From the NCBI GenBank assembly GCA_016342415.1, contig JAEIOD010000006.1, forward strand, positions 1 to 64,000: a DNA stretch of 64,000 nucleotides, written 5' to 3'. The translations under genes and the position numbers were made by a program. The stretch's first letter is position 1. Every line of letters begins with the position of its first letter. Origin of the DNA: Clostridiales bacterium (GTDB lineage: Bacteria; Bacillota; Clostridia; Peptostreptococcales; Acidaminobacteraceae). A model generated the notes under the pieces. It was given only the letters and a program-made list of their open reading frames with translations, did not search any database and had not been told where the DNA came from. Below are positions 1 through 42,426 of this stretch, in pieces.

Positions 1-181
1 CATACTGCTACAAAGTCCTAGGCAAGAACAGGTTTTTCATGCCCCTTGCTAAACGTTGTGATGAGTGCGACGATGAAACAAATACCCTAGAGGTATAAAA
101 ATGGTAGGACATACATCTCTAAAGTCCTAAGCAAGATTTGATTTCATCTTATCCTTGCTAAAGATCGTAATGAGTACGATT
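1..181 (+). ncRNA. Tandem structured-RNA candidate, two 109-nt units
   Basis: Two units repeat with a 109-nt period (GTCCTA at 15-20 and 124-129); the first is cut by the window edge. Each can form three helices. P1 pairs TAGGAC with GTCCTA around a 13-nt loop (complete in unit 2, 105-129). P2 pairs GCAAG with CTTGC (22-26/45-49 and 131-135/154-158). P3 is a 6-bp stem with a 7-nt loop ending in ATGAGT (54-72 and 163-181). The P3 stems differ in sequence but both pair (CGTTGT/GCGACG versus GATCGT/ACGATT), which is compensatory change. The G-U pairs in unit 1 only pair on the plus strand, which fixes the orientation. A terminator follows at 238-275 with no open reading frame between. I do not recognise the family. 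Confidence 0.5.
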
Positions 182-237
182 AATAAAACTATGTGACTAT
201 CAAATAGATTCTAAAATAGTTAATATTTATGAGTTAA

Positions 238-275
238 AAAGCCGTCTAATAATCGAATTAGACGGCTTTCTATTT
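238..275. terminator. Bidirectional intrinsic terminator
   Basis: A 13-bp perfect stem (AAAGCCGTCTAAT at 238-250 with its complement at 257-269) is flanked by an A-run on the left and T-rich sequence on the right. It can end the plus-strand RNA carrying the tandem units and the minus-strand diguanylate cyclase gene. Confidence 0.8.
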
Positions 276-316
276 ATTTGTTTTAGGATTACTAGAAACA
301 TTACATATGATCAAAA

Positions 317-1387
317 TCAAATAGAACTTAAAACAACACAATTGCGACCTTTATTCTTAGCTTTATACAGTGCTTTGTCTGATACTCTCATCATCTCATC
401 AAAAGTACTATATTCTCGTGTGTACTGCGTCACGCCGATACTTATTGTGATTTTCACTTCAATATCCCCTACTATAAATGCTTCATTTTCTACTACCGAT
501 CTGAGTTTTTCAGCAACTTCCATACCGCTCTCCCATGTCGTTTTCCGAATAATTATAGCAAACTCCTCTCCACCGTGTCTTGAAAAAGTATCTTCCTTAC
601 GAATATGTTGACGGATAACTTGAGTCAACTGAATCAGGATTTCATCTCCAACAGGATGTCCAAAGGAATCATTAATAAATTTAAAATGATCAATATCAAG
701 TTGAATCAAAGTAAATTCATGAGCATATTTATATGCTAACATCACCTCTTTTTTCCCTTGTTCAAAAAGAACTCTACGATTCGTCACTTGAGTTAACGCA
801 TCGGTGTTTGCTAAATGTCTGAGTTCATTTTGTTTCATTGAAAGATCTATCGTATATCTGTAGAAAATAAAAGTTGCTGGGAGAATTGTCGAAATAATTG
901 TAAGTGTGTGTATGAGTGTTTCTATTTCAGGGTCTAATACATACAAGTAAATATCCATACTATAAACGACACTCCCTAAAAAGAATAATGTCGCGATAAC
1001 AGATAATGAAAAAGCTAAATAACGTTCCCATGTTTTATGTACATCAATGGTTAAAAAAGCTGCAATTGGTACCATATAGTAAAACAGATTATAACCAGTT
1101 GTCACAGGAAACCATAAATAAACTGCTAAAGTAAGTTGTACTATAAAGGTTATCAAGATACTAAATTTTACAAATAAGTACTTCTTCTTTTTAACGAAGT
1201 ATAATAGACTCACATGAAATAAAATGTAAACAAGGTGTACAATTATTGCAGGTTTAAAAGGAGCAAATAATATATAGATACCCAAGAATACAGACGATGA
1301 TACTATTACAAGCAATATCAGTAAATACAGGATTTTTATTTTATAATCCATGTCTAAGTTCTTTTCTGCATTAAGAATATTTTTCAT
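317..1387 (-). CDS. Membrane diguanylate cyclase (GGDEF)
   Basis: This predicted enzyme makes cyclic di-GMP from two GTP. The 356-residue protein has about six hydrophobic segments in residues 19-180 forming a membrane sensor, followed by a GGDEF domain from about residue 190. The active-site loop reads GGEEF at 272-276, a common active variant. An inhibitory-site motif RxxD (RKED, 263-266) sits the usual five residues upstream, so product inhibition is likely. The ATG follows a GAGGAAGG ribosome binding site. It stands alone between gaps. The signal sensed cannot be told; the membrane part is not a recognised sensor family. Confidence 0.88.
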   Translation of the reverse strand: MKNILNAEKNLDMDYKIKILYLLILLVIVSSSVFLGIYILFAPFKPAIIVHLVYILFHVSLLYFVKKKKYLFVKFSILITFIVQLTLAVYLWFPVTTGYNLFYYMVPIAAFLTIDVHKTWERYLAFSLSVIATLFFLGSVVYSMDIYLYVLDPEIETLIHTLTIISTILPATFIFYRYTIDLSMKQNELRHLANTDALTQVTNRRVLFEQGKKEVMLAYKYAHEFTLIQLDIDHFKFINDSFGHPVGDEILIQLTQVIRQHIRKEDTFSRHGGEEFAIIIRKTTWESGMEVAEKLRSVVENEAFIVGDIEVKITISIGVTQYTREYSTFDEMMRVSDKALYKAKNKGRNCVVLSSI

Positions 1388-1725: not shown

Positions 1726-2127
1726 ATGGCAATTATTTTGAACACCAATCATAAAAGCAAACATACCGATATTCCAAAACATTGGAATAATTACCATAAG
1801 AAATACAAAAGCAAACTTCAAAAATATGATTATGGACTATTGAAGATTCATAACGATAACTCATATTCATATTGGATTGGTAGAGAGAGTTCGAAAGCTA
1901 ATAAACTCCTTATAATACCTGCAGGATGGTACTTAAAGTTTGATACTCCATTAGCTGACGCGTTCACTTTTGTAGAAAGCATTCATCAAGCATGGGAAGA
2001 AATATATAGATATATAAAGGAAAATAACATTACTCAAAAAGGCCCATTTGCCTTTGAAAGATATATCGAAGCTTCAAGAACATTCTCGGAAGAAATATTT
2101 ATACCTGTGGAAGGAGAAAAAATATGA
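1726..2127 (+). CDS. GyrI/AraC-type effector-binding domain protein
   Basis: The 133-residue protein resembles the C-terminal effector-binding (GyrI-like) domain of AraC/MerR regulators: a conserved IPAGWYLKF strand near the middle and a closing FERY...EEIFIPVE segment. It has no helix-turn-helix, so it is either a stand-alone ligand-binding protein or a truncated regulator. The ATG at 1726 is preferred over an in-frame TTG at 1717; neither has a strong ribosome binding site. Its stop overlaps the next start as ATGA, so translation of the next gene is probably coupled. The family assignment rests on motif resemblance only. Confidence 0.6.
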   Translation: MAIILNTNHKSKHTDIPKHWNNYHKKYKSKLQKYDYGLLKIHNDNSYSYWIGRESSKANKLLIIPAGWYLKFDTPLADAFTFVESIHQAWEEIYRYIKENNITQKGPFAFERYIEASRTFSEEIFIPVEGEKI

Positions 2128-3036
2128 GAAATAGTATGATGAAAGAATATGGCTTAATTCATTCCTTTGTCAAATCGCTAAAGACTGCAACTTATGATCT
2201 CAATGATCTAACTATTGAGGATTATGCAGTATTATCAGGATTTGCCTTAAGAACAATTGTCCATAAAGATTTATGTCCTAGTGCTATGAATGTCTTTGAC
2301 TGGTACTTACTTCAAAATGCAGCTGAAAATATCGGCTTTCAAGTTGAAGTAATCAGTAGACTGTGGCACGAAGAACAATTAGAAGTAGAAAGAAGAGAGA
2401 AAGCTTGTCACGTTATCGAAAATAGCCTTAATAAAGATAGACCTGTAATTGTCTGGGATTTATCTATACCAGAATGGGAAGTTATAACAGAGTCGAATGA
2501 AACACACTATAAAAGGTATTTCTGTCACTGGACAAGATGTTCAATTGAGTAAAGAAAAGTTAGGCAGGCGTGAAATTCCACTCCTTCATATCATGAGTAT
2601 TAATAACTGGGCTCCAGATAATGAAGAAGATAGTCATAAGAAAATATTAAATATAATAATAAATCATAATGAAGAAAATGAATCTCTACCTGATTCAGAT
2701 TACAAAGAAGGTTATAAAGCATATGATTTATGGATTGATAAAATGTCTGAAATAAATGAAGATGATTGGGAGTCAAGATATTATCTAGAAACTTATGGAG
2801 CTATGAAAAAACTTGCTGCAGTATTCTTTAAGAACCTAGCTGAGGATTATTCAAAATGGCATACAATTTCTTTCTTATATAAAGAGTTAGCAGATATATA
2901 CGAAAATATGATCAATCTAAGAAACAATCTCGATTATCCAAATAATGTTCAGCTAATACAAAACTCTCTTAAAAATGCCAAGGTACAAGAAAAAGCAATC
3001 TATGAAGAGGCTAAACTATTATTGAAAACTATTTAA
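2124..3036 (+). pseudogene. BtrH-like protein, single-base frameshift
   Basis: Two reading frames together make one protein of about 303 residues. The first (2124-2552) gives an N-terminal half with a VFDWYLLQNAAENIGF segment and a DRPVIVWDL...PEWEVIT strand, as in BtrH N-terminal / C39-like proteins. The second frame continues as KGISVTGQDVQLSKEK and runs to a stop at 3036 through a helical C-terminal part. Removing one A from the four-A tract at 2511-2514 joins them as THYKGISVTG. The first half alone would end in an unrelated tail. This is either a real recent inactivation or a sequencing error in a short homopolymer. It is coupled to the upstream effector-domain gene by ATGA with a GGAAGGAG site at 2109-2116. 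Function is unknown. Confidence 0.72.
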
Positions 3037-41671: not shown

Positions 41672-41690
41672 GTAGTTAAATTAATAAACA

Positions 41691-41758
41691 TTCGTATAAG
41701 TTTGACAATATGGGTCATTCGTTTCTACAAACTACCGTAAATAGTTATAGGCTACGAG
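41691..41758 (+). promoter_or_regulatory. Guanine riboswitch aptamer
   Basis: The purine-aptamer consensus is clear: TTCGTATAA at 41691-41699, loop 2 AATATGG, the junction word CGTTTCTAC, loop 3 CCGTAAAT with an AACTA/TAGTT stem, and closing GCTACGAG. The C in GCTACG is the specificity base, which points to guanine (or hypoxanthine/xanthine) rather than adenine. P1 pairs TCGTA with TACGA. Confidence 0.92.
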
Positions 41759-41803
41759 TTCACTTTTTATAGATATTTCTATACATTTTTTTTGTAAAAT
41801 TGA

Positions 41804-41829
41804 ACTCTGCTAGCGCAGGGTTTTTTTTT
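41804..41829 (+). terminator. Riboswitch-controlled terminator
   Basis: ACTCTGC pairs with GCAGGGT around TAGC, followed by nine Ts. TGAACTC at 41801-41807 is also the exact complement of GAGTTCA at 41756-41762, the 3' side of P1. When guanine holds P1 closed the terminator forms; without ligand the antiterminator wins. The logic is transcriptional OFF. Confidence 0.88.
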
Positions 41830-41853
41830 GAAATATCACCAAAGGAGATATCT

Positions 41854-42426
41854 ATGCAGTTACTTAAAGAAAAAATTTTAAAAGAAGGCAGAGTCGTTGG
41901 AGAAGAAATACTTAAGGTTGATTCATTTTTAAATCATCAACTGGATGTCGCTCTACTCCAAGAAATCGGTAAGGAATTTAAACAACGATTTTCAAGTAAG
42001 AAAGTCACTAAACTCTTGACCATTGAAGCCTCTGGCATTGGCATTGCTGCTATTGCAGCACAATACTTTAATGTACCAGTTGTTTTTGCAAAGAAAGTTG
42101 CTTCTAGAAACTTAGACAATGAAACTTACAAAACCGAGGTCTATTCTTTTACGAAACAAAAAAATTACGATGTCAGAGTTTCAAAACGTTATTTAAATGA
42201 GGATGATCATATCTTAGTATTAGATGATTTTCTAGCAAATGGACGTGCTGCTCTGGGTTTGATTGACCTTGTGGAACAATCAGGCGCAACACTTAGTGGT
42301 GTTGGTATTGTAATTGAAAAATCCTTCCAAGAAGGTGGGCAACTGTTAAGGGACAAAGGCATTCATCTAGAATCACTAGCAAAAGTAAATCGATTTATAG
42401 ATGAACAAATAACATTCGAAGCATAA
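41854..42426 (+). CDS. xpt: Xanthine phosphoribosyltransferase
   Basis: Xpt salvages xanthine (and some guanine) with PRPP to make XMP. The 190-residue protein has MQLLKEKILKEGRVVGEEILKVDSFLNHQ at the start and the PRPP motif VLVLDDFLANGRAA. Length is the usual 190-odd residues. The ATG follows AAAGGAG; an in-frame start at 41800 would be inside the riboswitch terminator and is not used. It is the first gene of the operon, under the guanine riboswitch. Confidence 0.95.
   Translation: MQLLKEKILKEGRVVGEEILKVDSFLNHQLDVALLQEIGKEFKQRFSSKKVTKLLTIEASGIGIAAIAAQYFNVPVVFAKKVASRNLDNETYKTEVYSFTKQKNYDVRVSKRYLNEDDHILVLDDFLANGRAALGLIDLVEQSGATLSGVGIVIEKSFQEGGQLLRDKGIHLESLAKVNRFIDEQITFEA

What the first reader, a model, noticed from the sequence alone, without database searches (positions are those of the whole stretch)
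1..236. Tandem structured RNA with compensatory base changes, family not recognised
Two 109-nt units share three helices and the loop word ATGAGT. P3 differs in sequence but pairs in both units, and the G-U pairs of unit 1 require plus-strand transcription. A terminator follows without an open frame. This could be a tandem aptamer, a 3' element of a gene outside the window, or part of a larger noncoding RNA.
Basis: seen in the sequence. Interest (0 to 1): 0.68.

Follow-up and report, generated by a model that had tools for sequence, protein, structure and literature searches.

The report
Tandem array of three-hairpin RNA units
The window starts inside a string of repeated, structured RNA units that matches no RNA family in the library searched, was found in only three related bacteria, each time behind a tiny gene, and probably works as a multi-copy binding RNA whose partner is still unknown.

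Summary
Window 1-184 is the 3' end of an array that continues on contig C11, whose last 77 bases equal the window's first 77. The array has at least four units (period 108-109) and a terminator-like hairpin (window 238-269). A unit holds hairpins P1, P2 and P3; the P1 loop is ANACNNCTNNAAA, the P3 loop RATGAGT. Homologous arrays were found in two relatives: G011 (3 units of about 90 nt) and G002 (6 units of 62 nt). Over 7 units, 96% of pair cells pair and 8 of 18 pairs show two-sided changes (0 of 500 shuffles). Of 221 cells, 21 are G-U and none A-C, so the plus strand is the RNA. No Rfam family fits (four searches). No other array turned up in samples of 41 family, 393 order, 391 class and 398 phylum genomes. 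In all three carriers the array follows a 42-59-codon ORF beginning MF, with a promoter-like site and a terminator-like hairpin; other neighbours differ. In two of three loci the next gene is convergent, which speaks against a riboswitch; none has a toxin-like gene. Best reading: a free-standing, multivalent decoy RNA under leader-ORF control. The fold is shown; the decoy role is inferred.

The parts
1..72 (+). Unit 1 of the window (third unit of the array): P1 3' strand 15-20, P2 21-26 with 45-50, linker 51-53, P3 54-59 with 67-72, P3 loop GATGAGT 60-66. Its first 7 bases lie on contig C11
   Evidence: cmsearch R2 75 bits at 1-75
82..96 (+). Linker hairpin ATACC-CTAGA-GGTAT, in the first three units of G000 only
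   Evidence: Sequence; fold of the unit at L005:8703-8811
103..181 (+). Unit 2 of the window (fourth, last unit): P1 105-110 with 124-129, P2 130-135 with 154-159, linker 160-162, P3 163-168 with 176-181, loop AATGAGT 169-175
   Evidence: cmsearch 86 bits at 103-184; folded with its 3' flank it gives these hairpins, P3 with one more pair and a 5-nt loop
238..269 (+). Intrinsic terminator-like hairpin (13 pairs) that ends the array
   Evidence: The upstream parts (leader ORF L005:7896-8075, its terminator-like hairpin L005:8141-8169, second promoter-like site L005:8252-8281, 5' segment about L005:8286-8594, units from L005:8595, 8703 and 8812) lie on contig C11, outside the window

Best explanation
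A stand-alone, plus-strand noncoding RNA made of 3 to 6 or more tandem copies of a three-hairpin unit (P1 with a 13-nt loop, P2 of variable length, P3 with a 7-nt RAUGAGU loop) that ends at a terminator-like hairpin. Shown by sequence comparison: the fold, the strand, the tandem array, and a short MF-starting ORF with promoter-like site and terminator-like hairpin upstream in three of three carriers. Inferred: the near-invariant P1 and P3 loops and the RAA linker are the face read by a partner, P2 is a spacer, and the repeated units form a multivalent decoy that titrates an RNA-binding protein (as CsrB-type RNAs titrate CsrA, but with another motif and so another partner). Also inferred: output is set by the leader, directly in G002, where the scan found no plus-strand promoter-like site between leader hairpin and array, and less directly in G000 and G011, which have a second promoter-like site there.
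For: Fold: MAFFT alignment of 7 units, 96.0% of 126 cells paired, 8 of 18 pairs with two-sided change, 0 of 500 shuffles as high on either measure, slid controls at most 42%; 14 rows give 95.2% and 9 pairs. Strand: 21 G-U, 0 A-C of 221 cells in 13 units; the G-U cells lie in 11 of 17 pairs. Loops: in 13 units the P1 loop is invariant at 8 of 13 positions, the P3 loop at 6 of 7, the linker at 2 of 3, while stems change by compensation. Copy number differs: at least 4, 3 and 6. Leader: TTGAC(T/G)-17-TATACT, MF start and a following terminator-like hairpin in all three loci. Next gene convergent in two of three loci.
Against: No partner, no expression data, no phenotype. The structure was written down after seeing the alignment, and A3 was fitted to model R1. 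The weakest covariation measure, further pair types, was reached by 13 of 500 and 31 of 500 shuffles, and two-sided pairs by 2 of 500. Nine of the 21 G-U cells come from one pair, and units in one array are not independent. The pair 4-26 is unpaired in 9 of 13 countable rows. Minimum-energy folds give all three hairpins in 5 of 7 single units, not in L009:1327-1408 or L027:7718-7779, with z-scores -0.1 to -2.2. The G002 leader was not found by the DNA search with the G000 leader; its likeness rests on layout and an alignment. The 5' segments of G000 and G011 share no sequence, and G002 has none. In G002 a same-strand gene follows. The loops could equally be read by an RNA.
Confidence: 0.42

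Rival explanations
1. Multivalent base-pairing RNA: the exposed RAUGAGU loop (and the P1 loop) pair with an mRNA or sRNA, so the array is an sRNA sponge or a repeated antisense regulator, as the repeated C-rich loops of RNAIII do (recalled).
For: The 7-nt loop is presented in a hairpin and is nearly invariant in 13 units; tandem copies raise the effective dose.
Against: No target was searched for beyond the leaders: the loop complement ACTCAT occurs once in the G000 leader and not in those of G011 and G002. Invariance over three genomes with diverged stems fits a protein at least as well.
Confidence: 0.24
2. Type III antitoxin-like RNA: the units are processed and bound by a ribonuclease toxin encoded elsewhere.
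For: Tandem RNA repeats with variable copy number and a terminator after the array, as type III systems are described (passages of PMC5086642).
Against: No toxin-like ORF directly follows the array in the three loci: convergent GGDEF, convergent phosphate transporter, ABC ATPase (the ATPase also matches AAA_21, a model that names a type IV toxin, most likely a cross-match among ATPases). Units are 62-109 nt against 34-36 nt for the ToxI and antiQ repeats quoted there. The genomes were not searched for type III toxins.
Confidence: 0.09
3. Tandem aptamer or riboswitch (cis-regulatory).
For: Compact, conserved loops and tandem arrangement; in G002 a same-strand ABC-type gene follows the array and its end hairpin.
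Against: In G000 and G011 the array ends in a terminator-like hairpin and the next gene is convergent. Three to six or more copies would be unusual (recalled).
Confidence: 0.07
4. DNA-level element: hairpin repeats used in recombination or as a mobile element.
For: Neighbouring genes differ in the three genomes, and the locus beside the G001 homologue of the left-hand gene lacks the cassette.
Against: G-U but no A-C departures (21 to 0) show that one strand is selected as RNA (or as single-stranded DNA of that sense). No common end sequences were seen by eye; the end hairpins differ. No blastn match of L005:8280-8895 in phage or plasmid records.
Confidence: 0.05
5. Element tied to a translation or ribosome-rescue response: in G011 a 65-aa basic ORF between leader and array ends inside a long hairpin, a layout like that of arfA (recalled).
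For: ORF at L011:7151-7348 minus; hairpin over its stop codon. In G000 an 11-codon ORF lies directly before a two-part hairpin of 25 pairs.
Against: The 65-aa ORF has no Pfam hit above cut-off, no NCBIfam hit and no PDB match better than E 1.2, and among 41 family genomes it was found only in G011 itself. G002 has no such segment.
Confidence: 0.05

Closest known systems
CsrB / RsmZ-type decoy RNAs
   Same: Free-standing RNA with repeated hairpins that show the same loop motif; proposed titration of a protein.
   Different: No GGA in the P1 and P3 loops of 13 of 13 units; GGA occurs in 6 of 13 units, in the P1 stem, and in none of the six G002 units. The units are tandem duplicates with three hairpins.
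Type III antitoxin RNAs (ToxI, CptI, TenpI, AntiQ)
   Same: Tandem RNA repeats with variable copy number, and a terminator.
   Different: No toxin-like gene directly downstream; units about two to three times longer than the quoted ToxI and antiQ repeats; the ORF lies upstream.
Large ornate bacterial RNAs (GOLLD, ROOL, OLE)
   Same: Long structured RNA of unknown function.
   Different: No Rfam match; here the length comes from tandem repeats of one short unit. Papers on them were seen only as a listing with abstract starts.
Guanidine-II (mini-ykkC) riboswitch and other tandem hairpin aptamers (recalled)
   Same: Repeated small hairpins with conserved loops.
   Different: No regulated gene follows in two of three loci; no Rfam match; loops differ (recalled).

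Membership tests
Any Rfam 15 family | Score at or above the family's gathering score | tested here: not met
   Whole window at gathering: only a purine riboswitch at 41672-41774. Window 1-400 at E up to 5: 12 sub-threshold matches, 11 overlapping the terminator hairpin, the last a 21-nt piece at 74-94. L005:7500-8895 at E up to 2: none. L011 and L027 at gathering: none.
CsrB / RsmZ-type decoy RNA | Repeated GGA in hairpin loops | tested here: not met
   P1 and P3 loops hold no GGA in 13 of 13 units; the variable P2 loops were not tested apart
CsrB / RsmZ-type decoy RNA | Binds and titrates CsrA/RsmA | not testable with these tools
   Needs a binding assay
Type III toxin-antitoxin | Tandem RNA repeat array followed by an intrinsic terminator | tested here: met
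   the G002 hairpin is seen in the fold but was not called by the terminator scan
Type III toxin-antitoxin | Toxin ORF of the ToxN/CptN/TenpN kind directly downstream | tested here: not met
   Next genes carry GGDEF, PHO4 and ABC_tran domains, the first two convergent
Riboswitch / cis-regulatory aptamer | Located in the 5' leader of a gene it can regulate | tested here: not met
   Next gene convergent in 2 of 3 loci. In the third, G002, a same-strand gene follows the end hairpin, so that locus alone leaves it open
tRNA / tmRNA | ARAGORN hit | tested here: not met
   None in L005, L011, L027, L001
Hammerhead ribozyme array | CUGANGA, GAAA and the three-stem junction (recalled) | tested here: not met
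   UGAUGA spans the last P3 stem base and the P3 loop of a covarying hairpin and is preceded by G, not C; 5 of 6 G002 units lack GAAA, the sixth has it in the P2 loop
Protein-coding repeat | Period divisible by 3 with an open frame | tested here: not met
   Periods 109 and 62; no plus-strand ORF of 60 aa or more overlaps window 1-341

The most novel reading that the evidence does not exclude
A previously undescribed regulatory cassette: a leader peptide that senses the state of translation opens a terminator and releases a multi-unit decoy RNA whose strength is set by the number of tandem three-hairpin units, which differs from genome to genome.
Probability: 0.25. Interest if true: 0.75.

Novelty: new variant of a known kind. 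Interest (0 to 1): 0.52.

Why it matters
It appears to be a new RNA family with good covariation and a repeated, near-invariant loop signature, small enough to be tested directly: a pull-down with one 62-nt unit should name the partner. If the decoy reading holds, it would be a titrating RNA built on a motif other than GGA, with dose written in tandem copy number. It also shows how contig ends hide such arrays.

Tried and rejected
Rejected: riboswitch, type III antitoxin as such, hammerhead array, tRNA-like element, coding repeat (see Membership tests). Kink-turn C/D box idea: RUGAUGA is there but no CUGA partner was seen; only read by eye. Loop-loop pairing of P1 with P3 in the unit: read by eye, at most two invariant pairs, dropped.

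Single pattern hits were scored with model R2, not counted as homologues. Order search: 8 genomes with one hit each, against one hit of the reversed control pattern, so singles exceed that control; all 8 loci were scored (L030, L032-L038). Class search: 6 genomes with one hit, 5 of them new, control 0; the 5 were scored. The best score in these 13 loci was 16.9 bits, against 67 bits or more for the 12 complete units. I looked at the sequence around 7 of the 8 order hits. Phylum search: one single hit outside G000 (G774), not scored, against control hits in several genomes. Viral contigs: pattern 1 gave 0; pattern 2 gave 91 stretches, of which the 80 held were scored, best 17.1 bits; pattern 3 gave 11, all scored, best 20.6 bits, 8 of the 11 matching P1 only. 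The genome-collection scan gave one stretch, in Massilia, 14.5 bits.

The order search with R2 scored only 11 first-look candidates per genome, so it was repeated with a pattern. The family leader search gave matches at E up to 0.1 in 16 of 41 genomes; besides G000 only G011 was strong (9e-27), and the G002 leader itself was not among the listed matches. Weak Pfam hits to two of the four small ORFs are below cut-off and not used. Literature: seven searches; no listed title or abstract start describes this RNA. That covers only the held open-access library and those terms.

Not done: no RNA-RNA target search beyond one loop word in the leaders, no search for type III toxins or CsrA in the genomes, no protein structure prediction, no metagenome scan; the organism was not identified.

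Full report
What is in the window. The window is contig C49 of genome G000 from its first base. A DNA search of the same genome placed 82-84% identical copies of window 1-179 and 1-180 near the end of contig C11. C11 ends at 128,894 and its last 77 bases equal window 1-77. The two contigs therefore adjoin in the assembly; an exact overlap of that size is typical of an assembly k-mer (inference). Read together they give units starting at L005:8595, 8703 and 8812 (C11; the third is unit 1 of the window) and at window 103, spaced 108, 109 and 109. Since assemblers break at repeats, four is a lower bound (inference). The assembly is reported at 9% contamination, so strain mixture is possible.

Homologues. 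A DNA search of 61 genomes found one array in G011 of the same family. A covariance model from 7 units (R1) searched in 41 family genomes found 3 carriers: G000, G011 and G002 of the same genus. G002 has six units of exactly 62 nt, with P2 reduced to 3-4 pairs, and a possible degenerate seventh at L027:8052-8111 that scores only 9.4 bits, E 2.4. Model R2 found no further carrier in 393 order genomes (with few candidates scored per genome). A pattern found multiple hits only in those three among 393 order genomes and only in G000 among 391 class genomes. Another pattern found G000 plus one single hit among 398 phylum genomes. The class and phylum samples did not list G002 or G011. Handles run from G000 to G1144, but different queries were used, so sensitivity is not uniform. 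G001, of the same genus, had no model hit and one unrelated-looking pattern hit; beside its homologue of the C11 left-hand gene (50% identity) lie genes that read like molybdenum-cofactor genes, and no array (gene names from reading, not tested).

Structure. On the MAFFT alignment of 7 units, with the structure that I wrote down after looking at it, 96.0% of 126 cells pair, 8 of 18 pairs have a two-sided change and the covariation score is 0.429 against 0.240 in shuffles (0 of 500 on these three); further pair types were reached by 13 of 500. With G002 added (14 rows, fitted to R1 and so leaning to it) 95.2% of 231 cells pair, with 9 such pairs (2 of 500 shuffles) and further pair types reached by 31 of 500. 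Row window:1-75 repeats part of L005:8812-8893; I dropped it for the strand count. There, 17 pairs in 13 units gave 182 Watson-Crick, 21 G-U, 0 A-C, 2 other, 16 gaps; the G-U cells fall in 11 pairs, nine of them in one. In 13 units the P3 loop is RAUGAGU (A instead of G once), the P1 loop ANACNNCUNNAAA and the P2-P3 linker RAA. The pair 4-26 beside P1 is not standard in 9 of 13 countable rows, so P1 is best drawn as four pairs plus an outer U-A. Alone, 5 of 7 single units fold into the three hairpins. Identity within arrays averages 0.81 (G000), 0.62 (G011) and 0.90 (G002), and between arrays 0.65-0.77, which suggests repeated duplication within lineages.

Surroundings. In all three genomes the array lies downstream of a short ORF with a promoter-like TTGAC(T/G)-17-TATACT, a GGAGG-type ribosome site, a start MF(K/N), 59, 49 or 42 codons, and a terminator-like hairpin. 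The counts of promoter-like sites mean little (8 against 6.4 in shuffles for G000, 2 against 4.0 for G002, 7 against 3.6 for G011); the argument is their shared place and sequence. Terminator-like sites were 3 against 0.6, 1 against 0.5 and 4 against 0.9. G000 and G011 share 78% identity over about 147 bases at the end of the leader through its hairpin, but the same search did not find the G002 leader. G000 and G011 then carry a second promoter-like site and unrelated 5' segments with a long hairpin; G002 goes straight from leader hairpin to array with no plus-strand promoter-like site between. Other neighbours differ: in G000 a cell-wall hydrolase and a GGDEF protein, in G011 a solute-binding protein and a phosphate transporter, in G002 an FMN oxidoreductase and an ABC ATPase that reads like ABC-F ('ABC-F' is my reading). 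The next gene is convergent in G000 and G011 and on the same strand in G002.

Known families. Rfam gave no family in four searches. L005:8280-8895 had no blastn match in phage or plasmid records. Type III antitoxins are described as repeat array, terminator, toxin ORF (passages of PMC5086642); the toxin ORF is missing here. CsrB-type RNAs were seen only in a listing with abstract starts.

Reading. What is shown by comparison: a plus-strand structured RNA in tandem units, an end hairpin, and a leader-like ORF upstream in three of three carriers. What is inferred: transcription, partner and purpose. Near-invariant loops on compensating stems, free copy number and, in two of three loci, no gene to regulate in cis point to a trans-acting, multivalent RNA. 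I prefer a protein decoy because the loop sequences stay fixed while stems and neighbourhoods do not, but an RNA partner is not excluded.

Noticed in passing
window 41672-41774 +: Purine riboswitch (Rfam RF00167, 64.1 bits) ahead of an ORF at 41800-42426 that reads like a phosphoribosyltransferase, then a lipoprotein-like ORF and an ABC-ATPase-like ORF (names from reading).
   Followed up: partly
L011 7151-7348 - (G011): A 65-aa basic ORF whose stop codon lies in a long hairpin, between leader and array, found only in G011 among 41 family genomes; layout recalls arfA.
   Followed up: partly
L005 8050-8107 and the matching part of L011: Two small hairpins conserved between G000 and G011 at the end of the leader ORF and after it (CGGTATGC..., GCGT...ACGC), with changes that keep pairing by eye.
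   Followed up: partly
window 2124-3036: Two overlapping plus-strand ORFs (2124-2552 and 2497-3036) behind a Cass2-like effector-binding ORF (1717-2127); possibly one gene broken by a frameshift.
   Followed up: no
L027 7110-7259 - (G002): A 49-aa helix-turn-helix ORF (HTH_8 match just below its cut-off), perhaps a transposase remnant (guess), beside the G002 leader.
   Followed up: no
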